Of a stretch of 64,000 nucleotides of DNA, positions 2,388 to 51,685 are shown one piece after another; positions within the stretch are counted from its first letter, which is position 1; each line of letters starts with the position of its first letter. The position numbers were made by a program, and so were the translations under genes. The notes under the pieces are model-generated. The model ran no database searches, was not told the origin of the DNA, and saw only the letters and a program-made list of their open reading frames with translations. Source of the stretch: Seiridium cupressi (lineage: Eukaryota; Ascomycota; Sordariomycetes; Amphisphaeriales; Sporocadaceae); the NCBI GenBank assembly GCA_036674765.1, contig JARVKI010000050.1, positions 186,001 to 250,000 of the forward strand, written 5' to 3'.

Positions 2388-3347
2388 GGTGACGGAAGCG
2401 AAGTGCTTCTGCCTCGTCGTATTACGATTAGTTGATTCGATGGGAGAGAGCGGGTTATAGTAGAGGGTAAAATATAGCCTGGTTGAGGAGCTTGATTGTT
2501 GTGGGATGAATGCGATCTACAGTGGTCGGACGCAGTTGTCAAGGGGCGTGCGAAAGATATACCAAAAGGAAATGAATGGAATGTAGGCAGGACGCTCGGA
2601 CTGGCATAAAATCTGAATTAGCAACCGATTAGTGACCCTCCGACGGAAGGAAATAGCATCATGAGTCCGACCATCCAGAAATTTTCTTGACGGTGTCGGC
2701 TTTAGGATTTCGTGTAATTTGACTCAAATCTCCTTCCATAACGCTGATGCTAACGTCATCGTCACGGCTAACGGGGCCTCCGGGATGAATTTTATGAAAA
2801 TGCACATACCAATCCGCGCTTATTTCTTAGCGTCGGGCTACTAGCGGGAATGGGCCGAGGCTCGCGGTCGCATCCGCAAAAAGAAACCAGTATACTGGGA
2901 ACTGGTAAAATCGTGCAAAAAAATTCCTTTCAACGCAGGTTATCTCTGGATGTTTTCAGTCGTCTTATAATATCAAGATCCATCTTTGCATGACTTTCTG
3001 GCGCTCCAATCCCTTGAACCAACCTCTCGGTCCCAAAGCAGGAAGCGGCGGAGGCGCTATGACGAGACCCGATTGTCTGTTTTGCGCGAATGTGGCACTA
3101 AAACAAGGCGGGCCCAGCTATTAATCCCTGACCATGCATCCGTCAGCCCGTCAGCCGTCAGCGCGCAGGCTCCATAGACGGAATACAGCTCTGATCCGAA
3201 CTCCGTACACCATCCATCGGTCCACTAGGCAACCAGCTTTTTCACTATCCAGCTTGTCAGAATCCTTTATCTCTTACCCAATTCTTTTCTCCACTTGTTT
3301 TACTACATTTTCTGTATATGATTATACGGATGTGATTTCAACCAATA
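2388..3347. other. Intergenic between MFS gene and tRNA-Phe
   Basis: No coding gene is supported. It should hold the promoter of the minus-strand MFS gene and the 5' flank of the tRNA gene. Short open frames near 2986-3385 lack domain or codon support. Confidence 0.5.
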
Positions 3348-3493
3348 GCGGGGATAGCTCAGTTGGGAGAGCGCCAGGTGAGTAACCAAACCGAACAATC
3401 CACTATTAATCCATTCACTAACAATCCCAAAGACTGAAGTCAAACATCAGTTCTTAAATCTGGAGGTCATGTGTTCGATCCACATTCACCGCA
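3348..3493 (+). tRNA. tRNA-Phe(GAA) gene with two insertions
   Basis: Removing two inserts leaves an exact 73-nt tRNA. The acceptor strand is GCGGGGA (3348-3354), pairing with TCACCGC except for one G:A mismatch at 5:68. The D arm is GCTC/GAGC, the anticodon stem is CCAGA/TCTGG with loop CTGAAGA (anticodon GAA), the T arm is ATGTG/CACAT with loop TTCGATC, and the discriminator is A. The core closely matches known fungal tRNA-Phe. The A box is about 3355-3366, the B box GTTCGATCC is 3473-3481, and a TTTTT Pol III stop lies at 3503-3507. The insert at 3440-3457 (18 nt) sits at the canonical 37/38 position and contains TTC, which can pair with the anticodon. The other insert, 3378-3432, splits the anticodon stem between positions 30 and 31 and is annotated separately. 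It may be a functional gene with unprecedented processing or a recently interrupted pseudogene. Confidence 0.88.
3378..3432 (+). other. Spliceosomal-type intron inside tRNA-Phe
   Basis: A 55-nt insert with a GTGAGT 5' end, the branch-like motif CACTAAC ending at 3422, and AAAG at the 3' end, about 10 nt beyond the branch motif. Size and signals match the mRNA introns elsewhere in this window (45-72 nt). It is not at the position cut by the eukaryotic tRNA splicing endonuclease. The boundaries are fixed by restoring CCAG+A of the anticodon stem. That this is an intron rather than a random insertion is inference from the signals. Confidence 0.7.
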
Positions 3494-5720
3494 ATCAATC
3501 ACTTTTTGCCTCTTGTCAGTGTCTGGTTAGGATTCGAATATGTAGGTATTGATTGTTGCTTTTTGCGCTGAGGAGAAAACCACATGGGCACGTGGATTAC
3601 TGGTATGCGTCATGCCGGTTATGCCGGTCACATGATTGCGAAACTGGTCAACTTGAATTCATGCTTTTGTTTTTGCTTTCCGCCTTCGGCCGAACCATGA
3701 ACAGGAATCCCGGCACACGAGAGACTACCGGTATCGGCATTTCTAATCAGCATGTGCAGACCTCAAGGTTTGTTCGATCTTGGTAGCAACAATCAGATCC
3801 CTGCCTCGGCTGGGGATGCAGATTCGTGGAGATGCTGTAAGCTGAGTGAATACCGATGCAGCCGGGATTAAAACATCTCACCATAGATCGTCCAGCTCCC
3901 CCCGCTCACTGCAGATCAATCTGATGCCGACATCCTGGGTTATCTAAATATCGAGATTTATGTACCCTGGCTGAACAGGCTTAAAAATAGGCCTTTTATA
4001 TGCTGATGCCATTTGATGAGCGCGATTTGTAGTGCAGATTACTGGCGGGAGCCTGGGAGAATCTCTACCTTTCACATGAGCTTTGTCGTAAGATTAAAGC
4101 GCCAATTTTAAGTGGCTGCCATCGAACATGATACAAGTAGGAATTTCAATTTCCAACTACGCAATGGGTCAAATCGATATGCTTGCAGCCAGACGCACGA
4201 ATATTGTTCCTTATAGACCGGTGCCGCTCTAGATCTGTATCGCTTGTGGGCGACTTTTGGTCTGTTCCGAGAAAATATGATGTATATGCAATACTCTTTC
4301 TCCTTGACACAATCCAACCGCTCATGCAAGCAAGAAAACACAGCTGACCATCTTTAATGGCTTTGCATCGGAAAGATCGGCAAGTACTAGGCTAGCTATA
4401 AATCTAAGGCCTGTCTACGACTTTTTTCTTTCTTTGTCCTAGTCTGGAAGGTTATGCTCACCGGCAACGGTCAGGAGAAAAGTCAACCAACGCGATGGCC
4501 ACTACAGGTGGCGTTTGTTTTTATGTTCATAGAGACAATCGTAGATAGGGTTTTGTGAGTCACACCCATAGCATTCTCATCAGGTCAATCGATGAGAAAG
4601 CTACATGCATTTATTGTATGCTATCTAGTCGCTCTGTATTTCTGGATAGATTATGATCTCTTTATAAGAGTTATAGTAACCCAATTTCTAAATATCACCT
4701 TTTGGGGTAGTGTAATGCTATCAGTGACGGTGGCTGTGGTGTTTTGACCCCCTCTATAGTTCCAGTTGGGGTTCTATACTCAGCATTAACGCCGCGATCC
4801 GTGCTAAGAATTTGTTGCCTTGAATGGCAGTTTCTTGCTCAAGATGAAACGCAGTCCTGCGGCAGATTCTTCTACCTTCGTCGGTAGGCTTGCCGGATTA
4901 CGTATCATTTGATTAGGAAACCATGTATTCTGATCCGAACATTGGTTAGTCAGCTATGTTTCTTTTGTCGTCGAACGAAGACATTCGCCGTCGACCAGAC
5001 TGGCGACGTATCACAGCAGATGTGTTCGATCAGCAAGAGAAGCGAAAGGCAGTGAAGGACAGAGGGCAAATAAGGTTTGCGACATGTGGTCTTTGCTAAG
5101 CATGTAAAATTTGATCAACACGACACAAGGTAACACAAAATCGCAAAAGAACCGTGCAGTTGACATCATGAGTGAACGACAGGTATGGAACAAGATAGGC
5201 ACACCATGGCGCCTTTGCCAGATCCTGGATTGGGCGCTATAACCCATGCGGGCAGCGGGGTAGTAGCATTCGCAGGGGCTGAGGGCGCATATTGTCACCC
5301 AATCCGAGCTGCAGCGGAGCATTGGAGATTGATCGGCTCTTGGACCTGCCCTGACCAAGATCACTTCATTGCTGCCACCTTCCGTCTTGGACCTAGCTCC
5401 ACCAGAGCTTCGCTCAAAAGATGGCTTCAGGGCCCCGGCTAGGCAAGTGCTGTGCCGTTAATTCTGTCGTCGCCAACGCACATCGCTCGTTCAAGACCTC
5501 CGTTATACAGGCATCTTACAGTGGTCCTGGACAGCCTGGCGCCGAAGGTGTGTTGTATCGACAAGCAAGGCGGTCGATCGCAGGTGTTGTAGCATTGAGC
5601 ATTGCTTAAAACCGTGGATACCCTCTACAGGTGAGTCGTCCCTCGCGTGAATCAGGAGCCTTGATCTTGTTGCTTGTTTGGAATCTTGGCAGTATCCATA
5701 CTCTATATCGATATATCGCC
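3494..5720. other. Intergenic, 2.2 kb
   Basis: No gene supported on either strand. The open frames are short, overlap one another and show no recognizable domain. The T run at 3503-3507 is the tRNA terminator. The right end should contain the promoter and leader of the S28 peptidase. Confidence 0.5.
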
Positions 5721-7721
5721 ATGGTCCGCTACTGGTTCGGAGCGGGCTTGCTCTCGCTGCCGTTGCTGGCCCAAGCTATCCAGCCGCGTCTGGGCTCGCC
5801 AACACTGCCCGTTAGCAAATTGCGACAGCAGGTAATATTAGCCCCGTCACCTATCGCGCACCGGTTGGCGAGCTGTACGCTGACTATGTGACCAAAGGCA
5901 CAGTCTTTCGATGGGCTTTCTATAGAAGAGGTCGCCGCCGCCGCCGCTACCTACCCCGCCTACAACCTGTCCACGCCCGTTGACCATTTCCACAATGACT
6001 CTAAATACGAACCTCACTCAGATGGCTTCTTCGACAACCGATACTGGTTCGACGCACAATACTACAAGCCGGGCGGTCCTGTCATTGTCCTAGCTTCTGG
6101 TGAGACTTCTGGTACCGATCGTTTCCCCTACCTACAAAAGGGTGTAGTGGCCCAGATAGCCAATGCGACCAATGGCATCGGTGTTATCCTAGAGCATCGC
6201 TATTATGGCAGCAGTTGGCCGGTCCCAGACCTGAGCACGGAGAACCTGCGTTTCCTTACGACCGACCAGGCGTTGGCAGATGCCGTCTACTTTGCACAAA
6301 ACGTCAAGTTCCCAGGGCTAGAGGAGTACGACCTCACATCCAACAGTACCGCCTATATCGCATACGGTGGATCTTACGCCGGCGCATTTGTTGCGATTCT
6401 GCGCAAGTTGTATCCAGATGTGTACTTCGGGGCCATCTCCTCGTCTGGCGTCACTGAAGCGATCTATGATTACTGGGAGTATTTGGAGGCCGCTCGCATT
6501 TACGGACCCAAGGCCGGTATCGAGGCCACCCAGAAGGTCATCAATGTTGTCGACAACATCCTCATTGGCAAGAATGGCACCGAGTACCCCCAGCAACTGA
6601 AGGAGGTCTTTGGCCTAGGCGGTGTGACGAATGATGGAGACTTTGCCAACGCGCTGGCCAGCGGAATTTATGCTCTGCAGAGCTATAATTGGGATCCCAC
6701 GCAGAGCTCCGACGAGTTCTTCACGTACAACGCTATCGTGGGTAACGACTCTGTCGTTTATCCCAGCACCGAGTCTCTGAGGTCTACCGTCGAGGAGCTC
6801 ATCGAAGTAGGCGGTCGGGGCAACGAGACGAATACACTGTCAAACCACTTCTTGAACTATATCGGCTACGTTCGAGGTACGTCAGCGGCCAGCTGCACGG
6901 AAGAGGACCAGAATGTCTGTTTTGGAACAAGCGACTCGGAGTTCTACGCTCAGGTTGATCCTTCCCAGACGTGGAAATCGTGGCCATATCAGTATTGCAC
7001 TGAGTAAGTTTGTTGCCAATGTCTCATACAAATTGCTGCCTTGTACATGTCGAAGGAACCGCTAGACAAGCGTCTTGGGGCAGCTGTCATATGTGTACCT
7101 GATACATCAGATTTGTGTAACGTGTATGGTTGGACTGTTGCTGACCATACCCAGATGGGGTTTTCTCCAAACTGGAAGCGGTACTCCACCTGATCAATTG
7201 CCTTTGATTTCGCGGACCATCGATATCCCTTACAGTGCCCAGATTTGTGTAGAATCCTTCAACATCACAACTCCTTCGGATGTCGAGGTTATCAACAAGT
7301 ATGGCGGGTTCAACCTTAGTTATCCTCGTTTGGCTTTCATCGACGGGGAATGGGATCCATGGCGCGCTGCCACACCTCATGCTATTCACCTCCCGGTGCG
7401 ACCTGACACCATCAGCGAGCCGTTCAGACTGATTCCCAAGGCTGTCCATCATTGGGACGAAAATGGTCTCTTTGCCAACGAGACCACGCCGGAGCTGCCA
7501 CCCCCATCTGTCAAGGAGGTCCAAGAATATGAAGTGGAGTTCGTCACCGAGTGGCTCAAGGACTGGAAGGCAGAGAAGAGTACGAACCTTGGACAACCAT
7601 GATTCCCTAGACCGCCACGACGGATGCTTGGGGTTTGAAGTTACTAACAGATCTTGCAGATATCAATAAGGATGAGATGGAGGATTCCATCCATGGCTTT
7701 TACAAGCAGTACTACTATTAA
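5721..7721 (+). CDS. Serine peptidase, family S28 (prolyl carboxypeptidase-like)
   Basis: Four exons: 5721-5831, 5904-7003, 7155-7579, 7660-7721; 565 residues. The introns are 72, 151 and 80 nt, with GTAATA, GTAAGT and GTACGA donors. The start MVRYWFGAGLLSLPLLAQA gives a clear signal peptide. S28 landmarks are NRYWFDAQYY, EHRYYGSSWP, the nucleophile motif GGSYAG (Ser about 194), the CTEWGFLQTG segment restored across intron 2, the Asp in EWDPW (about 471) and the His in HHWDENG (about 502-503). Several NxS/T sites suggest glycosylation. By family it is a secreted or vacuolar exo- or endopeptidase cleaving after proline, active at acid pH. The last intron, joining ...AEK to NINKDEMED, is the least certain, but it uses a TACTAAC branch and ends on a natural stop. 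Confidence 0.92.
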
Positions 7722-8610
7722 ACTTACAATCTCGAAACCATTCATTGCTCCAACTGACGCGCAAAGTCGAAAGCAGAAGATGCAATCTGTAATACTGTCG
7801 CGCGGCTCTCTAGTCGAAGTAACGTGTTTTTAAACTAACGAACACTTTTGAAATGTAACATCCCAACGACTCGTTGGGTCTAGGGTATGCAACTAATCTT
7901 AGATTCTGTGGGGGTTGTCGTCATGTCATCCGGGTACAAACCGAGACTATGTTTGTGTTTCTTCTAGAACTCTCGGCGAACGTCACTTTTACTCTTATGT
8001 CAGCCGAAGATATGGCTAGAAACAAAGCTGACTGTATGCCCGAGAAGCTTGAGGGCCAATCGGCATCGGTTGTTGAAGTTTGGCGGAAACACGGAAGTCG
8101 CACGGCGTCCTACGAGTCCGAACGGCACTTTAGCAGCCCTAGATCGAAGTTTTAGCTTCGGTAGTCTGGCGTGCTTGCTTTGGGGTCATACCAATTCCGG
8201 GACAGTAGGACGCCTCTAGCACCGGTCTGTCCGTTCGGCTTGCGCTAGACTCAGGCCACTGTCCGCCTGTGGAGAGCTTCGACCTTCGGGAGCCTACAAG
8301 TCCCCGATCCCGCTAGCACAACGCCAAGGTCAGTCCGTAAGATTGAAATCGAGTTGGGGCGGAGCATGAAATATTCACATTCCACATAGCTTTGCCTTAG
8401 CCGTTGGTGTTGACTTTGTGTTATATTAGTGACTATGCTCTCACGTCTCGCTCATCGTTTTATTTCCTTTCTCTTCATTCACACTTTCAGATACCCCCCA
8501 AACACTATAATCAGCATTGACGTCCTTTTACTATAAACAATACCAGTTCGGAACCTCTTTATCATTATCAGACCGAAAAGTGCTTATACAGGAAGCAAAA
8601 TTACTCCACA
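7722..8610. other. Intergenic; ABC transporter promoter and leader
   Basis: No gene supported. A pyrimidine-rich stretch at about 8456-8490 resembles a fungal core promoter or leader just upstream of the ABC gene. A small perfect stem (CGAAG/CTTCG) lies at about 8145-8161; its role is unknown. Confidence 0.45.
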
Positions 8611-11600
8611 ATGTCGCTGCGACGGGCCAGTCGGGGGCAAATCTCGGACAGCGCTAGCTCGACCGAGTTCGACAGCCAGGAAGACTTGCAAAGAGTCGCT
8701 TCCATCATTGAGGAAAATGAGAGAATTGAACTACACAGGCTGGCCACTTCTCTTTCAAGACGCCAGTCAGATGCGAGGTCACCAGGTATTCGAAGAGCCT
8801 CCACGGGGCTGGGCCGAATTGCGAGCATAGCAGAAGATGATCCAAGACTTCGCCCCGACAGCAAAGATTTTGATCTTTCAAGATGGCTGAAGAGAGTCCT
8901 TCGCGAAGTGCAGTCTGAAGGTGTCACCCTGAAACGGACGGGCATTGCTTATCAAAACCTCAATGTCTCTGGATCTGCATCTGCTTTGCAACTTCAGTCC
9001 ACCGTTGGGAGCATGTTGACTGCACCGTTGCGGCCGGGCGAGATGTTCAGCTTCGGGAAGAATGAACCTAAGCAAATCCTTCGGAATTTTGATGGCTTGG
9101 TGAAGAGCGGAGAGCTTCTCATAGTGCTCGGGCGACCGGGCTCGGGGTGTTCGACACTACTAAAAACCATGACCGGGCAATTACATGGCTTGTCTGTCGA
9201 CCAGAAGTCTTCTGTCAGCTACGATGGTATCTCACAGAAGGTCATGATGAAAGAGTTTAAAGGAGAAACTCCTTACAACCAAGAGGTTCGTGCCATGATC
9301 ACCACCCTCTCTGAATACTATACTGACTTCGAGCACTATAGGTTGATAAGCATTTCCCGCATCTCACGGTCGGCCAGACGATGGAGTTTGCCGCCCTTGC
9401 GAGAATGCCCTCCAACACTCATGCGAACATGACGCGGAATGAGAGATCTAAGCTAGGAGCTCAAGTAGTCATGGCCGTATGCGGTTTAAGCCACACGTAC
9501 AATACAAAGGTTGGAAACGACTTCGTGAGAGGAGTATCCGGTGGGGAGCGCAAACGTGTCAGTATCGCAGAGATGATTTTGGCCGGCTCTCCACTAGCCG
9601 CATGGGACAACAGGTGAGCAGTTTGCCGCCGAATTCTCTTTGACGCTCGCTGACAATATTTAGCACGCGGGGTCTTGATTCTGCTACAGCGCTGAAGTTT
9701 GTTCAAACGTTACGACTTGGTGCTGACTTATGCGACACAACCGGGGCTGTTGCAATCTACCAGGCTAGTCAGGCAATCTATGACCTGTTCGACAAGGCTA
9801 CGGTTTTGTACGAAGGACGACAGATCTACTTCGGCCCTGCTCGCAATGCCAGAGCCTTCTTTGAGAAGCAGGGTTGGCTTTGCCCTCCACGCCAGACAAC
9901 CGGTGATTTCCTCACCTCGATCACAAATGCCTCAGAGAGGACGGCACGTCCAGGAATGGAAGAGAGTGTGCCACGGACGCCCGACGAATTTGAACGTTAC
10001 TGGCGCCAGTCTCCCGAGTTTCAAGCCTTGCAAAAGCAAATTACGCAGTACCAAGAGCAGCACCCTATGGATAAAGCAGGCCACAGCCTCTCGCTCCTCC
10101 GCCAACAGAAGAACGCTAGCCAAGCAAAACATGTTCGGCCGAAATCACCCTATCTCATCAGCGTGCCGATGCAAATAGCCCTCAACACAAAGAGGGCATA
10201 CCAGCGGATATGGGGCGATAGGTCGGCGCTGACGACGACACTAGTATCACAGATCATCATCGCGCTCATTGTGGGATCTGTATTCTACGGAACTCCAGAC
10301 GCATCGGCTGGCTTCCAGTCGAAGGCTTCCGCGATTTTCCTTGCCGTCCTGGTCAACGGCCTCGCGACGATTTCCGAAATCATTAATCTATACGACCAAC
10401 GGCCAATTGTCGAGAAACAGGTCTCGTATGCCTTCTATCACCCTTCAACGGAAGCTATAGCTGGAATTGTGTCCGACATACCTATCAAATTTGCTCAGGC
10501 AACACTATTCAACATAATCTTTTACTTTATGGTTGGGCTAGGACGTACACCTTCACAATTCTTTCTCTTCTTCCTCATCACGTATATTTGCACCTTCGCC
10601 ATGGCTGGGATTTTCAGAACAATGGCCGCTATCACCAAGACGGCCTCTCAAGCATTGGCGCTGGCGGGAGTTCTCATTCTCGCTCTTGTTATCTATACTG
10701 GCTTTACCATCTCAGTGCCATTGATGCATCCTTGGTTCTCTTGGATTCGGTTCCTGAACCCGCTGTTCTGGGGTTTCGAAATTCTCATGGCCAACGAGTT
10801 CCACGGCAGAAACTTTGTGTGTTCAGGTATTGTTCCGGCCTATTCGCCTCTGGTCGGCGACTCCTGGATCTGTTCTACCGTCGGCGCGGTAGCCGGACAA
10901 GACTTTGTCAGTGGAGATGCCTATATCGCTGCCAGTTATCAGTACTACTACTCCCATGTCTGGCGCAACTTTGGTATTATCCTTGCATTCCTGATCTTCT
11001 TCATGGCTCTTTATTTCGTTGCCTCCGAGCTCAACTCCTCCACCAGCAGCACCGCTGAAGCGCTTGTGTACCAGCGTGGCCATGTCCCGGCTCATCTGAG
11101 GAAAGGTGCTGGTGGTAGTGCAGTGGACGAAGAAATGGCAGCAGCACCCGAAACCGGGGCTGAGGCGGACACTGGCGATATGAGAGCGATCGAACCACAG
11201 ACGGACATCTTTACTTGGCAAGACGTGGTCTATGATATTGAGATCAAAGGAGAGCCTAGACGATTGCTAGACCATGTCTCGGGATGGGTGAAACCGGGCA
11301 CTCTCACGGCTCTAATGGGAGTGAGCGGTGCTGGTAAGACGACGCTGCTCGATGTTTTGGCCCAGAGGACGACTATGGGTGTCATTACTGGTGGCATGTT
11401 TGTCAATGGGAAACCTTTAGATGCTGGATTTCAACGTAGCACGGGCTACGTCCAACAACAAGGTAAGTGGACCTCTGAATTTTGTGGTACGCCAAGAATA
11501 CTAATGGTGTTGTAGATCTGCATCTAGAGACGGCCACTGTCCGTGAGAGTTTACGTTTCAGTGCTATGCTTCGTCAGCCCAAGTCGGTCAGCAAACAGGA

Positions 11601-13218
11601 AAAGTTTGACTATGTCGAGGAAGTCATCAAATTGCTCAACATGGAGTCATTCGCGGATGCAGTTGTTGGCGTTCCTGGCGAGGGACTGAACGTTGAGCAG
11701 CGAAAACTCCTTACTATCGGTGTTGAGCTCGCGGCGAAGCCCAAGCTTCTGCTGTTCCTCGACGAGCCAACTAGCGGTCTTGATTCACAGAGCTCGTGGG
11801 CTATCTGCTCGTTCCTTCGCAAGCTTGCTGACGCAGGACAAGCTGTTCTGTGCACTGTGCATCAGCCGAGCGCCCTGCTGTTCCAACAATTTGACCGTCT
11901 GTTGTTCTTGGCTCGGGGTGGAAAGACGGTGTATTTCGGCGATATTGGACAGAACTCCCGAACGCTGCTAGACTACTTCGAGTCGAATGGAGCCAGGAGG
12001 TGCGACGATGAAGAAAACCCGGCTGAGTACATGCTGGAAATTGTCAACAACAGCCAAGACAGTCAAGGTCGAGACTGGCATTCAGCTTGGACGGCCAGTG
12101 CTGAAAGCCAGGCGGTCCAAACGGAGATCGGGAGAATCCACTCCGCAAAGCAGAAAGAGTCCATCGCAGGAGGAGCCGAGGCAGGGGTGCACAGTGAATT
12201 CGCGATGCCTTTCGGCGCTCAGTTGTCCGAGGTCACTGTTCGCGTGTTTCAACAGTATTGGCGCACGCCGAGCTACATCGCTTCGAAGTGCTTTTTAGCT
12301 ATCGCGGCCGGCCTTTTTGTTGGCTTTTCCTTTTTCCAGGCCAGCACGAGCTTAGCAGGCATGCAGACCGTGGTGTTCGCTTCTTTCATGTTGACCACGA
12401 TATTCAGTTCTGTCGTGCAGGGCATCCAGCCAGTTTTCGTTACTCAGCGATCGCTCTACGAGGTGCGCGAGCGGCCGTCCAAAGCTTACTCCTGGCAAGT
12501 CTTCCTTATCGCCAACGTCGTCGTGGAGATTCCGTGGCAGGTCCTCATGGGGATTCTCACGTACGCGTGCTTCTACTATCCCGTGGCTGGTATTCAAAGT
12601 TCGGAGCGACAGGGTCTCACCCTCCTCTTTTGCATTCAGCTGTTCATTTACGCGGCAACATTTGCACAGATGACTGTGGCGGCGCTGAGGGATGCACAGA
12701 CGGCAGGTGCCATTGTCACCCTTCTGACTATGATGAGCTTGATCTTTTGCGGTGCTCTGCAGTCGCCGACAGCACTCCCGGGCTTCTGGATCTTCATGTA
12801 CCGTGTTTCCCCCTTCACCTATTGGATCGACGGCATGATTTCAACCCAGCTACACGACCGTCAGGTAGTTTGCACCGCTAGCGAAACATCCGTCTTCGAC
12901 CCGCCATCCGGCCAAACCTGTGGCCAATACCTGGCCGCGTATCTGCAAGAAGCACCGGGAACGCTGCAGAACCCCGACGACAGTTCGCAATGCAGATACT
13001 GTTCCATTTCGGTTGCCGATCAATTCCTCGCGGGCAATGGTATGTCCTGGGACCACAGGTGGCGCAACTTTGGCATCATGTGGGCGTTTGTCTTTTTCAA
13101 TGTCGCCATCGCTGTGTTGACTTACTATCTCTTCCGCGTGCATCGTTGGAATACGGGCTCGATCAGCTTGAAGAAAAACAAAAGCAAAACAAAGGATACG
13201 ACACAACAGAAGTCTTAG
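8611..13218 (+). CDS. PDR-type (ABCG full-size) ABC transporter
   Basis: Four exons: 8611-9285, 9342-9613, 9664-11462, 11516-13218; 1482 residues, the usual length of Pdr5/Cdr1-class pumps. Order is NBD1-TMD1-NBD2-TMD2. NBD1 has the PDR-type Walker [10 protein letters not shown] (about 174-182), signature [10 protein letters not shown] (about 290) and degenerate Walker B ending [11 protein letters not shown], restored across intron 2. NBD2 has Walker [10 protein letters not shown] (about 868), the altered signature LNVEQRKLL and Walker [14 protein letters not shown] (about 990). This asymmetry of the two ATP sites is normal for the family. The introns are 56, 50 and 53 nt; intron 1 has a weaker GTTCGT donor, but removing it restores the conserved segment [13 protein letters not shown]. 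It would be a plasma-membrane exporter of hydrophobic compounds, including toxins or azoles; the substrate is not deducible. Confidence 0.95.
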
Positions 13219-47327: not shown

Positions 47328-50285
47328 TCATACGCTGTATGACTTGTTACCGTAGACAAGCCCAGGGCCCAATTTAGTAATTGCCACCCAGTCAGGGGCA
47401 TACTGCAGCGCTTGGTCAAGGGCAGGGATAGTGCCCTGTTGATTGGCGTCATCCCACTTGCAAAACACTTCAATGTCAATTTTTCCACTGACATTCGTTT
47501 CTTTCGACCACTCGATATTTACAGCCCATGGTTTGCTCCAATCGCGACGATAGAGCAGGATGCTGTCCAAGCCCTCTTTAGGAACTGCACCGAAACGATC
47601 ATCTTGTGGGCTACTTCCTGACACCAAGAATTTGGCGACCGGCTTCGAGAAGCGTACGCCACAAGTCCTTGTTTCGACGCCGTCAAGCTGGAAGTACAGC
47701 TTGTTAGAGTATCGCGAGGCGTTAAATTTGACCCAGTCAACGAGTTTCTTCTCATGGCCGCCGACTTTGGGGAGCACGCTTGACGCGTCGTAGGTGCAGT
47801 AACCCATATCGGGCCTGTCGGATGCCTTAGTCTCGCATGTGATCTCTCTGTCCATAGCGGACGGTATCGAAGCCAATGCTTGCCGCACGTATTTCTCGGC
47901 CCCCATGAAGTGGGCGAAAGACTCTCCAGTGTCGAGGTTGATATCTTGTGCAAAGTAAATCTTATATCGACTTGAGACGTTGAAGGGGAAAGCGACGAGG
48001 TTATATATAAGTGTAGCAGCAAATATGACAAGGAGGACAAGAGGGATATGATGGGTAACCCGATGCACAAAAGGGGTAATGGGTAGGACCAGGAGGATGC
48101 TGACGATGGCCACAAGGAGATAAGGAACCAGGGTGTTACTGCCGTCGGCACCGGTTTCCTTCACGGACGCAACGAGCTCAAGGCCCAGTTGGCCGAACAG
48201 CATGAGAAAGAACGGTCCGAGGAGAAGGAACTGGAAGAACCACAACCAACTTGGAAGCTTTCCTGACCATACCTGCTCATGACCAAATGGTTGGCTCGCG
48301 GGGTCTTCTCCTGGCGCCGTCTTATCTATTATAGCAGTTGTTGAACGTCGATAACCTGTACCGAACGTGAAAGAGCGATTCTTATTGCTGTTTCCACCGA
48401 TCAATGGGCGTGTCTCATCGGGCTCTTCCTCTTGTTCATCCTCATTGGCGCCATTCTCGGCAGCAGCTGCCTCGTTGACACTGTCTTCGGGTGGTACCTG
48501 TTCCGGATGGTCATCCACATTTACGTTTGCTGATCCCTCGGTGTCGTGGTCGCCTTGTGCCTTTTGAGCGAACGTAGTCTTCTTTGGCAAACGGAATTGC
48601 TCGAATAGACTGAGTAGGGAAGCCAGAAAAACTGCAAGTTGGAAAAACACGAAAGGGTAGCCGGCCGCAATGTGGAAGCGATCTTCGAAGACAGTCACTG
48701 CTACAAGGACAGCCCATGTCATGATGAAAAGCCAAAAGAAAGCGTAGCCTCGATGAAGAGCGCTGGCTCGGACGAAATTGGCCCCTGCCATAATGACCCA
48801 GAAGGCAAAGTAGAAGAGTGCCAACATCATGGCCCATACAGTATACTCGTAGCTGTAAATGATGAAGGGGTTGATCTTTCTGACCAGGTAGGCTGCTGCG
48901 ACAACTAGAGCCCCTGCAACTACCAGAGCAAAAGGGAATCTGATAAGGCCTCTATAACCACCGAGCGATATTGGCTCAGCGCCAGATTCTTCTTCCCGGG
49001 TAGACTTTGAAGAAAAGAAGTAAAATTTGTCGCTTCGAGATAGAATGAATACGAACAATGTCAGTATTAGAGGAGTTGCGATCAAGAAGCTCAGAGATAG
49101 GGCAAACAGGTCGTGAAGACCAAGGAGAATGAAGGCTTTCCCAAAGAGATCAAACCATACACCGTCGGTTGGTGCCCCATTGTCAATCTTCTTTCGGTTT
49201 CCGTCGGGTCGCTTCCCAATAAAGGTATCTCCAGTATCTCCAGAAAGCCTCTTCATAGTATGTACAGAGTGTGACAGCATGTGCCATAGGCTGTCTATAG
49301 ACGTATGGCGAGTGTCATCCTGATTAGTATGGTAACGCGCGCGTGGCCGATAAAAGGCGAGATCCAGTCCACGCATGCCATATATATCATGAAAGATTGA
49401 GTAGTCAGTTCCGCTTCGGATGACTCCGAGTCCCCAAGCATCAGAGGAGACTACCGAGCCAAATGGGTTTGGGCCTCCTTGGTAGGCATGGGTCACCTCA
49501 GCATCAGTCGTCCTGAAGAGATTTGCTTTGCCTCCAGCTGCAGCTCCCTCGAGGTTCAAAAAGACATGACAAAATGGCATGAGAGGATGGTTACCAAAGG
49601 CGCGGGAGCCCCAAAGCCAGTCCTCCTCGTTGTTGTTCAGCAGAGCGACAATGCCTTTCTGCGGCTGATTGGCGGGTAACGAGAAGTACTTGATGAGCTG
49701 GAGGACAGATACGACAGCCATGCCATCATCCGTGGCACCATATCCTGTCGAGACAGAATCGAAGTGAGCGTTCACAAGGGCACCCCCCTTGCCTATAATC
49801 TTGTCTGCATGAGCGTCGTCCTCCCACCACTTCGCGGCGGGGTCATCTTTGCCACGGATATAGACCATAATATTGTTGCCCTCGAAATAGGTGCCGATCG
49901 TCTTGGGTTGGAAGTCCGGGCCCTGTAAGGGCTTCGGAGCCCTCTCCTCGCCAAACACAGTGACATTGCTAACATTGTCGTCAAAGACAACGAAGTTCTG
50001 CTCACTGGCGTTGCTTCCCGCCTTGATCTCGTGTATTCGCTGGAGTAGCCAGGTGCGGACAGCATCGTTCTCTCGACTGTTGTAGGGGTGGTAGGCTCGG
50101 GCAAGAGTGGTGAGATCGGACCAAGCTTCGGCAAGATTGAGCCCAGTCTCGATTCTCTCGGGCGACGGTGCTGTAGGAACGGTTTCGTGAATGATAAGCA
50201 GAGGAATGAGCAGAGCAAGGTACACAATTGTGGTCCAGAAGGTGACTTGGGCAGGCCGAAAGGCGATAGGATTGGGTACACCCAT
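47328..50285 (-). CDS. pff1: Vacuolar membrane protease, family M28 (Pff1-like)
   Basis: A single exon of 985 residues. TM1 (VTFWTTIVYLALLIPLLII) is followed by a lumenal M28 peptidase domain with the zinc ligands and catalytic residues in order: AHFDSV (His174, Asp176), GYGATDDG (Asp186/187), NNNEEDW (Glu220, Glu221) and NLEGAAAGG (Glu246), plus YHTNQDD near 340. About eight further TM helices follow, with an acidic cytosolic loop (EDEQEEEPDETRPL) between them, then a lumenal beta-rich C-terminus. This is the architecture of yeast Pff1, a multispanning vacuolar metalloprotease. The start MGVPNPIAFRP places TM1 at the usual distance. Length and motifs look intact. Confidence 0.95.
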   Translation of the reverse strand: MGVPNPIAFRPAQVTFWTTIVYLALLIPLLIIHETVPTAPSPERIETGLNLAEAWSDLTTLARAYHPYNSRENDAVRTWLLQRIHEIKAGSNASEQNFVVFDDNVSNVTVFGEERAPKPLQGPDFQPKTIGTYFEGNNIMVYIRGKDDPAAKWWEDDAHADKIIGKGGALVNAHFDSVSTGYGATDDGMAVVSVLQLIKYFSLPANQPQKGIVALLNNNEEDWLWGSRAFGNHPLMPFCHVFLNLEGAAAGGKANLFRTTDAEVTHAYQGGPNPFGSVVSSDAWGLGVIRSGTDYSIFHDIYGMRGLDLAFYRPRARYHTNQDDTRHTSIDSLWHMLSHSVHTMKRLSGDTGDTFIGKRPDGNRKKIDNGAPTDGVWFDLFGKAFILLGLHDLFALSLSFLIATPLILTLFVFILSRSDKFYFFSSKSTREEESGAEPISLGGYRGLIRFPFALVVAGALVVAAAYLVRKINPFIIYSYEYTVWAMMLALFYFAFWVIMAGANFVRASALHRGYAFFWLFIMTWAVLVAVTVFEDRFHIAAGYPFVFFQLAVFLASLLSLFEQFRLPKKTTFAQKAQGDHDTEGSANVNVDDHPEQVPPEDSVNEAAAAENGANEDEQEEEPDETRPLIGGNSNKNRSFTFGTGYRRSTTAIIDKTAPGEDPASQPFGHEQVWSGKLPSWLWFFQFLLLGPFFLMLFGQLGLELVASVKETGADGSNTLVPYLLVAIVSILLVLPITPFVHRVTHHIPLVLLVIFAATLIYNLVAFPFNVSSRYKIYFAQDINLDTGESFAHFMGAEKYVRQALASIPSAMDREITCETKASDRPDMGYCTYDASSVLPKVGGHEKKLVDWVKFNASRYSNKLYFQLDGVETRTCGVRFSKPVAKFLVSGSSPQDDRFGAVPKEGLDSILLYRRDWSKPWAVNIEWSKETNVSGKIDIEVFCKWDDANQQGTIPALDQALQYAPDWVAITKLGPGLVYGNKSYSV

Positions 50286-51685
50286 GTTGGCGTCTTAGGA
50301 GAGAAGAGGAAGCAATGATGCTAGAGGGATGGCCATTAGTGGCACCTCAATGCCAATTCAAAGATGCTCAGAGGTGACCAGACAGCATCATCGTACTCTC
50401 CAAAGTTGGATATCGTTGCGGGTCGCTGCTGCAACCTTGGAACCTAGCTGCGGACTGAGGGGCAGTTGAAGCCGCCTAAAGCCGCTGGAGGAGGAAAGTC
50501 GAACTGGAGCTTGGGCCCACGACCACCAGCCGAGGTGCATTAGCACTAACGTTACTTAGTTAGAGGGCAGCAGACCCTTGCCATGTTGCAATGGATCTTG
50601 CAGGCGCACATGGGCGAACCTAAACCGAACCGAACCCAGGAAACAGAGGTCAAAAGGCACAGCTCCGGTGACAGCTGAGCCACGTTTACGTTACAAACTA
50701 GAAGGACTGGGATAGACGGCGTGTATTATGGTGTCTCCCAAATATAGATTCCAATTCTACATTGTTGGCAACCTCATCAATTGGTCTATATAATGCACTG
50801 CTTCGTTTACTCCGCAGCACATCAAGCCCGTATTCTCAGGTCGCGAACCTACCTACATTAGACTGTCTTTTATTTTATCTCTTGCCGTAGAAGTAGACCT
50901 TACACCGTCAGAGTACAAACCTTGAGTTCTTCTCAAAGATTTTTGAGATATTCATGACATCTTCGATTTTACTGCATACTCGTTATTACCATATTTCGAT
51001 TATTGATGTATTTCTTTAACTGTGGCCTGTGAACTGACGTGTATAGTTTCTTGCGGAACTCTTGTGCCGCATGCAGGACTTGATTCGAAACATATGCAAC
51101 GATAGATCAATCAAGTGCAGCATTATATAAAAGGCTATGTTTATCCAGTTCCATCCACTGCATTGGAAGAAACGCCCTTTTTCGTGCATGAGATGATATG
51201 GGCGTTATTTATGATCGTATGGAGGAACTCGATACCTAGGGCGTGTTCCCCTCCCCAGAACATTATCTTCATAAATCCGTGTCTCTACTTGTTGCCAATG
51301 CGCCATAATTAGTCAATATCCATACTCCTATTCAAGGCGATTCGAGCAGGGGCAATTCTACTCGAGAACATAAAGAGGGAGATATCAGATGTCGTGTACT
51401 GCGATAAATAGGATAACTGATTGTAAACCAACAGACTGTGCCACTTAGTTGCAGCTGGTGCCTGGCGCTAGATGAACGTCATCCACCATCAATCCAACCT
51501 GCATACTACAATGCAGGTTAGACAACAAACAAATAAAATGATTCAATCTTTTGCGGACCATCTCAAATAAAGTTTGATTTCGTTTTCATTACATCCTCTA
51601 CCCAAGTCCTCGAGTATTACATCTGTGGCGGGCCCAGTGTTACCATTCGTACAAATCCATTAGATCAGGTTCAGGTGCAATCAGG
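50286..51685. other. Intergenic, divergent promoters, 1.4 kb
   Basis: Between the Pff1-like gene (-) and the RING-YEATS gene (+). No gene supported. The part just upstream of 50600 is GC-rich and the remainder AT-rich. Confidence 0.5.

What the first reader, a model, noticed from the sequence alone, without database searches (positions are those of the whole stretch)
3348..3493. tRNA-Phe gene interrupted by a spliceosomal-type intron in the anticodon stem
Seen: removing 3378-3432 and 3440-3457 leaves a perfect 73-nt tRNA-Phe(GAA), with intact A and B boxes and a T5 terminator. The second insert is the ordinary 37/38 tRNA intron. The first, between positions 30 and 31, has the hallmarks of an mRNA intron of this genome: GTGAGT, CACTAAC, AG about 10 nt later, and 55 nt in length. 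Known: eukaryotic tRNA introns are cut at 37/38 by the tRNA splicing endonuclease, and Pol III transcripts are not normally spliced by the spliceosome. Inference: this is either a Pol II-read tRNA spliced in two ways, an intron gained in a tRNA gene, or an interrupted pseudogene. I know of no established example of the first two in fungi.
Basis: partly seen in the sequence, partly recalled or inferred. Interest (0 to 1): 0.87.

Follow-up and report, generated by a model that had tools for sequence, protein, structure and literature searches.

The report
Spliceosomal-type introns inside tRNA genes
In this fungus several transfer-RNA genes are interrupted by what look like ordinary messenger-RNA introns as well as by the usual tRNA intron, so making these tRNAs would seem to need two splicing machineries that are normally kept apart.

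Summary
The window gene is tRNA-Phe(GAA) with a 55-nt GT-AG insert at 30/31 and an 18-nt intron at 37/38. One correction: the acceptor stem has a G5:A68 mismatch, so the tRNA is not perfect. The genome (45.4 Mb, Seiridium-like) holds at least eight tRNA genes with nine such inserts, 49-60 nt, each GT...AG with a CTAAC-like branch site: Phe(GAA) x2, Pro(AGG) x3, Pro(CGG) x1 (two inserts), Met(CAT), Lys(TTT). They lie at 26/27, 27/28, 30/31, 46/47 and 53/54. Insert-free paralogues exist for Phe, Pro(AGG) and Met. Between the two Phe copies all 6 differences lie in the insert, none in the other 91 nt. Two intron-bearing Pro(AGG) bodies differ by four complete base-pair swaps. None of the nine forms a full bulge-helix-bulge (best 3 of 4 central pairs), and none contains TTTT. 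Best reading: real U2-type introns in working Pol III tRNA genes, removed by the spliceosome, with the 37/38 intron left to the tRNA endonuclease. Splicing is inferred; no RNA data were available. The main rival, dead copies, fits the Pro(CGG) gene but fits the Phe and Pro(AGG) pairs poorly.

The parts
3348..3377 (+). tRNA-Phe(GAA) exon 1 (positions 1-30), with A box TAGCTCAGTTGG at 3355-3366
   Evidence: identical in the C9, C28 and C50 copies
3378..3432 (+). 55-nt mRNA-type insert at 30/31: 5' splice site GTGAGT 3378-3383, branch site CACTAAC 3416-3422 (A at 3421), 3' splice site AAG 3430-3432; longest T run 2
   Evidence: absent from the C9 copy; differs from the C28 insert at 6 sites, GTGAGT, CTAAC and final AG kept
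3433..3439 (+). tRNA-Phe exon 2 (positions 31-37, anticodon GAA)
3440..3457 (+). 18-nt canonical 37/38 tRNA intron; does not begin GT or end AG
   Evidence: 37/38 introns also in the C9, C28 and C2 tRNA-Phe genes
3458..3493 (+). tRNA-Phe exon 3 (positions 38-73), with B box TGTTCGATCCA at 3472-3482
3503..3507 (+). T5 run, Pol III terminator-like, starting at the 10th base after the gene
3339..3347 (+). 5' leader CAACCAATA, shared with the C28 copy; leaders with CAA are common before this genome's tRNA genes
   Evidence: background 38% of 25-base stretches

Best explanation
These are U2-type spliceosomal introns lying inside functional nuclear tRNA genes. Pol III reads the gene from its internal A and B boxes to the downstream T run (inferred). 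The major spliceosome removes the GT-AG insert from the precursor in the nucleus (inferred). The tRNA splicing endonuclease and ligase remove the 37/38 intron separately (inferred from its canonical place). The presence, position, splice signals and exon constraint are shown from sequence; the splicing is not shown.
For: (1) Nine inserts in eight genes all begin GT and end AG, at boundaries set by the cloverleaf (shifts 0 to -2 possible) and, for Phe, Pro(AGG) and Met, by insert-free paralogues. The 37/38 introns of the same eight genes do so in 0 of 8. (2) Seven of the nine have CTAAC, the branch A lying 11-15 nt from the 3' end in the six measured; the two in Pro(CGG) have CTGAC and TTAAC. 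Lengths are 49-60 nt. (3) Phe C50 against C28: 6 differences in 55 insert nt, 0 in 91 others (Fisher P 0.0024), while an ungapped comparison of flanks gives 64% over 100 nt upstream and 30% downstream. Pro C38a against C59: 16 changed columns of 62 in the insert, 0 of 71 exon nt (P 1.5e-6); their 37/38 introns differ at 2 of 18. (4) The two intron-bearing Pro(AGG) bodies differ at 9 sites, 8 of them forming four complete pair swaps, with the insert at the same 26/27 site. (5) No TTTT in 9 of 9 inserts and no TTT in 8 of 9; on 7 inserts that I took as independent, absence of TTT exceeds shuffles at P 0.014, absence of TTTT does not (P 0.35). (6) A run of 4 or more T starts within 17 nt of the gene in 8 of 8. 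(7) None of the nine has the full central helix of a bulge-helix-bulge: 0-2 of 4 pairs in eight, 3 of 4 in C38b.
Against: No RNA evidence of any kind. Insert-free copies exist for Phe, Pro(AGG) and Met, and an ordinary gene for Pro(CGG), so the cell need not depend on the interrupted ones. Exon identity between paralogues could come from gene conversion. The Phe body has an acceptor mismatch. The Pro(CGG) gene C46 has lost the conserved D-loop GG and may be dead. The Met and first Pro(CGG) donors are weak, GTTCGT and GTTTGT. The bulge-helix-bulge test separates poorly here, since true 37/38 introns gave only 1-2 of 4 pairs.
Confidence: 0.7

Rival explanations
1. Dead copies: mRNA-type introns landed in surplus tRNA genes and silenced them; mature tRNA comes only from the insert-free paralogues.
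For: Insert-free paralogues exist for Phe, Pro(AGG) and Met, and an ordinary Pro(CGG) gene exists. C46 has a damaged D loop. A decayed Phe fragment that keeps an insert 3' end lies at C9:176737.
Against: Phe and Pro(AGG) pairs keep all exon bases while their inserts diverge. Four compensated pairs separate intron-bearing Pro(AGG) bodies. Donor, CTAAC and AG are kept in diverged inserts. The decayed fragment shows what loss of constraint looks like: exon substitutions, a 4-nt insertion in an exon and no 5' half.
Confidence: 0.17
2. The inserts are extra tRNA-endonuclease introns at odd positions, as in the Guillardia nucleomorph, Cyanidioschyzon and Crenarchaeota.
For: Positions 30/31 and 45/46 are among those known in archaea, and odd-position introns occur in some algae (PMC4090602, passages). 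C. merolae introns reach 11-69 nt with up to three per gene, and many Guillardia odd introns form no defined bulge-helix-bulge (PMC3978253, passages), so length and a missing motif do not exclude this. One insert, C38b, has 3 of 4 central pairs.
Against: GT-AG ends in 9 of 9 against 0 of 8 for the 37/38 introns of the same genes, and CTAAC-like branch sites. No insert has all four central pairs.
Confidence: 0.05
3. Same introns and same spliceosome, but the precursor that is spliced is a Pol II read-through transcript, not the Pol III transcript.
For: Most spliceosomal substrates are Pol II transcripts (general knowledge, no call).
Against: Leader, A and B boxes, T run and scarcity of TTT fit Pol III. 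The window gene lies between an MFS transporter frame at 552-2516 and a carboxypeptidase frame starting at 5892; no host transcript is evident, though none was searched for beyond reading frames. S. pombe U6, a Pol III RNA, is spliced (PMC10484740, passages).
Confidence: 0.08

Closest known systems
mRNA-type intron of U6 snRNA in Schizosaccharomyces pombe
   Same: A spliceosomal intron in a Pol III-made small RNA of a fungus (PMC10484740, passages).
   Different: That intron lies near U6's catalytic nucleotides and is thought to come from reverse splicing. Here tRNA genes for four amino acids are hit at five positions, each together with a separate 37/38 intron.
Spliceosomal introns in rDNA of lichen-forming ascomycetes
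   Same: Spliceosomal introns in a structural RNA not made by Pol II, removed in vivo (PMC8527467, passages).
   Different: That RNA is a Pol I product. The word tRNA was not found in the main text of that paper.
Odd-position tRNA introns of the Guillardia theta nucleomorph and Cyanidioschyzon merolae
   Same: Eukaryotic tRNA genes with more than one intron, some away from 37/38; C. merolae introns are 11-69 nt (PMC4090602 and PMC3978253, passages).
   Different: C. merolae introns rely on bulge-helix-bulge motifs; Guillardia odd inserts are 3-24 nt and many lack a defined motif. The present inserts carry the splice signals of mRNA introns.
Canonical eukaryotic 37/38 tRNA intron
   Same: Each of the eight genes also has one.
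   Different: Different place and no GT-AG ends. The tRNAscan-SE 2.0 paper says that eukaryotic tRNA genes are limited to one intron (PMC8450103, passages).

Membership tests
U2-type spliceosomal intron | GT at the 5' end and AG at the 3' end | tested here: met
   9 of 9 inserts; boundaries set by tRNA structure and, for Phe, Pro(AGG) and Met, by insert-free paralogues
U2-type spliceosomal intron | fungal donor consensus (GTRNGY, recalled) | tested here: met
   7 of 9: GTGAGT x2, GTAAGC x4, GTAAGT x1; not met by GTTCGT in Met and GTTTGT in Pro(CGG)
U2-type spliceosomal intron | branch site CTRAY near the 3' end (consensus recalled) | tested here: met
   CTAAC in 7 of 9, CTGAC in 1, TTAAC in 1, which is off consensus. 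Pro C38a and C59 were found by a CTAAC search and are biased for it
U2-type spliceosomal intron | removed through a lariat by the spliceosome | not testable with these tools
   no RNA data
functional nuclear tRNA gene | cloverleaf after removal of both inserts | tested here: met
   all stems closed but for G5:A68 in Phe (also in the insert-free copy), T:T in the Met anticodon stem (also in insert-free Met C20) and T:T in the Pro D stem (also in the insert-free Pro(AGG) body)
functional nuclear tRNA gene | A box, B box and T-run terminator | tested here: met
   T run starting within 17 nt in 8 of 8; no internal TTTT in 7 of 8, the eighth (Lys) having it at its TTT anticodon; boxes read by eye; the D-loop GG is altered in C46
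functional nuclear tRNA gene | mature tRNA made and charged | not testable with these tools
   no RNA data
tRNA-endonuclease intron of bulge-helix-bulge type | central 4-bp helix between two 3-nt bulges | tested here: not met
   0-2 of 4 pairs in eight inserts and 3 of 4 in C38b, at every permitted boundary; the true 37/38 introns tested gave only 1-2, so the test has little power here
self-splicing group I or II intron | ribozyme core of some hundreds of nt (recalled) | tested here: not met
   inserts are 49-60 nt

The most novel reading that the evidence does not exclude
A fungal lineage in which nuclear tRNAs for phenylalanine, proline, methionine and lysine are partly made from Pol III transcripts that must pass through both the spliceosome and the tRNA splicing endonuclease, with introns gained repeatedly at different tRNA positions.
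Probability: 0.62. Interest if true: 0.93.

Novelty: new variant of a known kind. Interest (0 to 1): 0.86.

Why it matters
A 2026 review treats tRNA splicing as independent of the spliceosome (PMC13149111, passages). If these introns are spliced, the spliceosome accepts very short tRNA precursors (genes of 144-194 nt), apparently without Pol II coupling, and part of this fungus's tRNA supply depends on it. The insert-free and insert-bearing twin genes make polymerase coupling, splice-site choice and intron gain directly testable. It would also mean that tRNA gene finders can miss such genes: ARAGORN and Rfam missed the window gene.

Tried and rejected
Considered and rejected: assembly error (two intron-bearing Phe loci with different flanks, six further loci); self-splicing introns (too short); a shared mobile intron family (Phe and Pro(AGG) inserts share a short stretch, best P 0.003 before correction for 36 pairs: a lead only); endonuclease introns.

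ARAGORN with introns allowed is of no use as a judge here: with the insert removed it named Pro(AGG) twice and Phe C2 rightly, but Phe C50 and C28 as Tyr, Met as His, Lys as Glu, and even the insert-free Phe C9 as Asn; unspliced it named only Met C13 and Phe C2 as expected.

Led nowhere: viral-contig scan for the Phe exon-donor junction (5 hits, none a tRNA by eye); 29 hits, 2 real, 15 fetched and read as no tRNA, 1 a chance overlap with an ordinary tRNA (C39), the other 11 judged by the matched letters only; 23 hits, 4 real, 19 judged by letters; 20 hits, none taken as a tRNA; seven were fetched, the rest judged by letters; 25 hits, none taken as a tRNA; 2 fetched, the rest judged by letters. 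These searches assume CTAAC or CTGAC and certain spacings, so other cases can be missed; the Pro(CGG) gene C46 was. No relatives of this genome are held. rRNA introns, the lichen precedent, could not be tested: the search was unanswered. Predicted mRNA introns of the window were not validated against proteins, so 'like this genome's mRNA introns' rests on recalled fungal consensus plus a few candidates.

Full report
Observation. The window gene is tRNA-Phe(GAA), exons 3348-3377, 3433-3439 and 3458-3493, with a 55-nt insert at 30/31 and an 18-nt insert at 37/38. After removal of both, 73 nt remain with D, anticodon and T stems fully paired; the acceptor stem has 6 of 7 pairs, G5 facing A68. ARAGORN with bacterial settings and Rfam at gathering cut-offs miss the gene.

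Copies in the same genome. The 16-nt 5' end occurs three times. C9:176481 has the same 73-nt body and a 37/38 intron but not the 55-nt insert; C28:413189 and the window copy C50 have it. Thus an insert-free twin fixes the boundaries. C50 and C28 differ at 6 of 146 positions, all inside the insert and none in its donor, CTAAC or final AG; an ungapped comparison of flanks gives 64% over 100 nt upstream and 30% downstream. Fisher P for insert against the rest is 0.0024. A fourth gene, C2:364528, is an ordinary tRNA-Phe with another body.

Other tRNA genes. RF00005 gave 66 matches, of which 18, by my count, lie on contig C174, probably the mitochondrial genome. Only 63 of 1321 candidates were scored, so the list is incomplete. 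Of the other 48, two carry an extra insert: Met(CAT) C13:124207-124363 (52 nt, GTTCGT...TACTAAC...TAG) and Lys(TTT) C26:60226-60383 (59 nt, GTAAGC...GACTAAC...CAG), both at 46/47; the remaining matches are at most 101 nt long and I took them as having at most a 37/38 intron. A search for CTAAC + AG + T loop found two Pro(AGG) genes, C38:299609 and C59:114257, with 60- and 59-nt inserts at 26/27. A search with the Pro 5' half (13 places) then gave C16:21694, the same Pro(AGG) body without the insert; C38:309569, another Pro(AGG) body with a 55-nt insert at the same 26/27 place; C46:111935, a Pro(CGG) gene with two GT-AG inserts (27/28 and 53/54); and C3, an ordinary Pro(CGG). Searches (10 places; 12 places) gave two Met(CAT) genes, C20 and C185, without the insert. 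In all: eight genes, nine inserts. By my hand count about 79 nuclear tRNA genes were seen, not a random set. The closest to an even sample is B box GTTCGANYC plus T4 on contigs C1 to C14, the listed part (288 + 139 hits in all, only the first places listed). It holds 23 recognisable tRNA genes, 10 known before and 13, of which one (Met C13) has such an insert. For those 13, 46 stretches were fetched; 14 passed my stem and A-box filter and one (L171) was dropped as no tRNA. Listed hits with less than 12 nt between T loop and T run were not fetched, and genes with TTCAA loops or distant T runs are outside this sample.

What the inserts are. All nine begin GT and end AG, at ends that the tRNA fixes up to shifts of 0 to -2. 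Seven have CTAAC, one CTGAC, one TTAAC. The 37/38 introns of the same eight genes have GT-AG ends in 0 of 8. The bulge-helix-bulge test gave 0-2 of 4 central pairs in eight inserts and 3 of 4 in C38b; none has all four. The test is weak, since the five true 37/38 introns tried gave 1-2. Longest T run is 2 in eight inserts and 3 in one; shuffling seven inserts that I took as independent gives P 0.014 for lack of TTT, but 0.35 for lack of TTTT. Of eleven motif-defined mRNA intron candidates of the window, two (18%) lack TTT. The 37/38 introns of the eight genes have no TTT either.

Are the genes alive? For: exon invariance with diverging inserts in Phe and Pro(AGG), and four complete base-pair swaps between two intron-bearing Pro(AGG) bodies. 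If their 26/27 introns are one and the same gain, the body evolved under selection while interrupted; beyond the splice signals the two inserts are not detectably alike, so this homology rests on position. A fragment at C9:176737 that keeps an insert 3' end has lost its 5' half and has substitutions and a 4-nt insertion in its exons: that is what decay looks like. Against: insert-free or ordinary genes for Phe, Pro(AGG), Pro(CGG) and Met exist; gene conversion could keep exons alike; C46 has lost the D-loop GG. For Lys(TTT) no insert-free copy was seen, but C41:354628 may also read TTT, and the search was not complete.

Mechanism. CAA in the last 25 leader bases (7 of 8 interrupted and 13 of 15 ordinary genes, against 38% of 25-base stretches of the window), T runs starting within 17 nt of the 3' end in 8 of 8, no internal TTTT in 7 of 8 (the eighth is the Lys anticodon) and A and B boxes by eye point to Pol III. 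I infer spliceosomal removal in the nucleus and endonuclease removal of the 37/38 intron. The insert-free twins of Phe and Pro keep their 37/38 intron; if they arose by loss through a spliced RNA, that RNA had lost the GT-AG insert first. This is a speculation; gain into insert-free genes is as good.

Organism. A window protein (ORF 47328-50294, minus strand) is 97% identical to a Seiridium cardinale protein and 76% to one of Truncatella, so the genome is Seiridium or very near it. This rests on one protein.

Literature. Ten searches of open-licence PubMed Central papers showed no title or abstract start reporting spliceosomal introns in tRNA genes. Some lists were cut (one search showed 20 of 580, 20 of 30, 15 of 25), and subscription papers were not searched. 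Seen as passages only: PMC12730881, PMC11782384, PMC3978253, PMC10484740, PMC4090602, PMC8450103, PMC8527467, PMC13149111. The closest precedents are the U6 intron of S. pombe and the rDNA introns of lichens.

Rfam with permissive filters on 14 loci detects the insert-free Phe and Met genes, the ordinary Phe C2, and the interrupted Met and Lys genes, and none of the interrupted Phe or Pro genes; it also misses the insert-free Pro(AGG) and ordinary Pro(CGG) genes, so its silence on Pro is no evidence.

Changes after re-checking: the bulge-helix-bulge test was extended to all nine inserts, which raised the best score from 2 to 3 of 4; facts on Guillardia and C. merolae that soften that argument were added.

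Noticed in passing
L136 (G000:C2:634290-634560): A 158-nt tRNA-like stretch with matching acceptor and T stems but a very long middle that I could not parse into known arms and introns; no GT-AG insert was evident by eye.
   Followed up: partly
L001, G000:C9:176737 onward: A decayed 3' piece of a tRNA-Phe gene that keeps the end of the mRNA-type insert lies under 200 bases downstream of the insert-free tRNA-Phe copy.
   Followed up: partly
L106, G000:C46:111935-112128: Pro(CGG) gene with three inserts; the second GT-AG insert sits at 53/54 at the edge of the T loop and so splits the B box, whose sequence is largely restored by the AG at the insert's end.
   Followed up: partly
L048 bases 1608-1692 (near G000:C13:124607): A second tRNA gene on the opposite strand lies about 240 bases from the interrupted Met gene (51.9 bits; also L166).
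   Followed up: no
window 8521-13218: PDR-type ABC transporter domains spread over three reading frames, with short intron candidates between the second and third.
   Followed up: no
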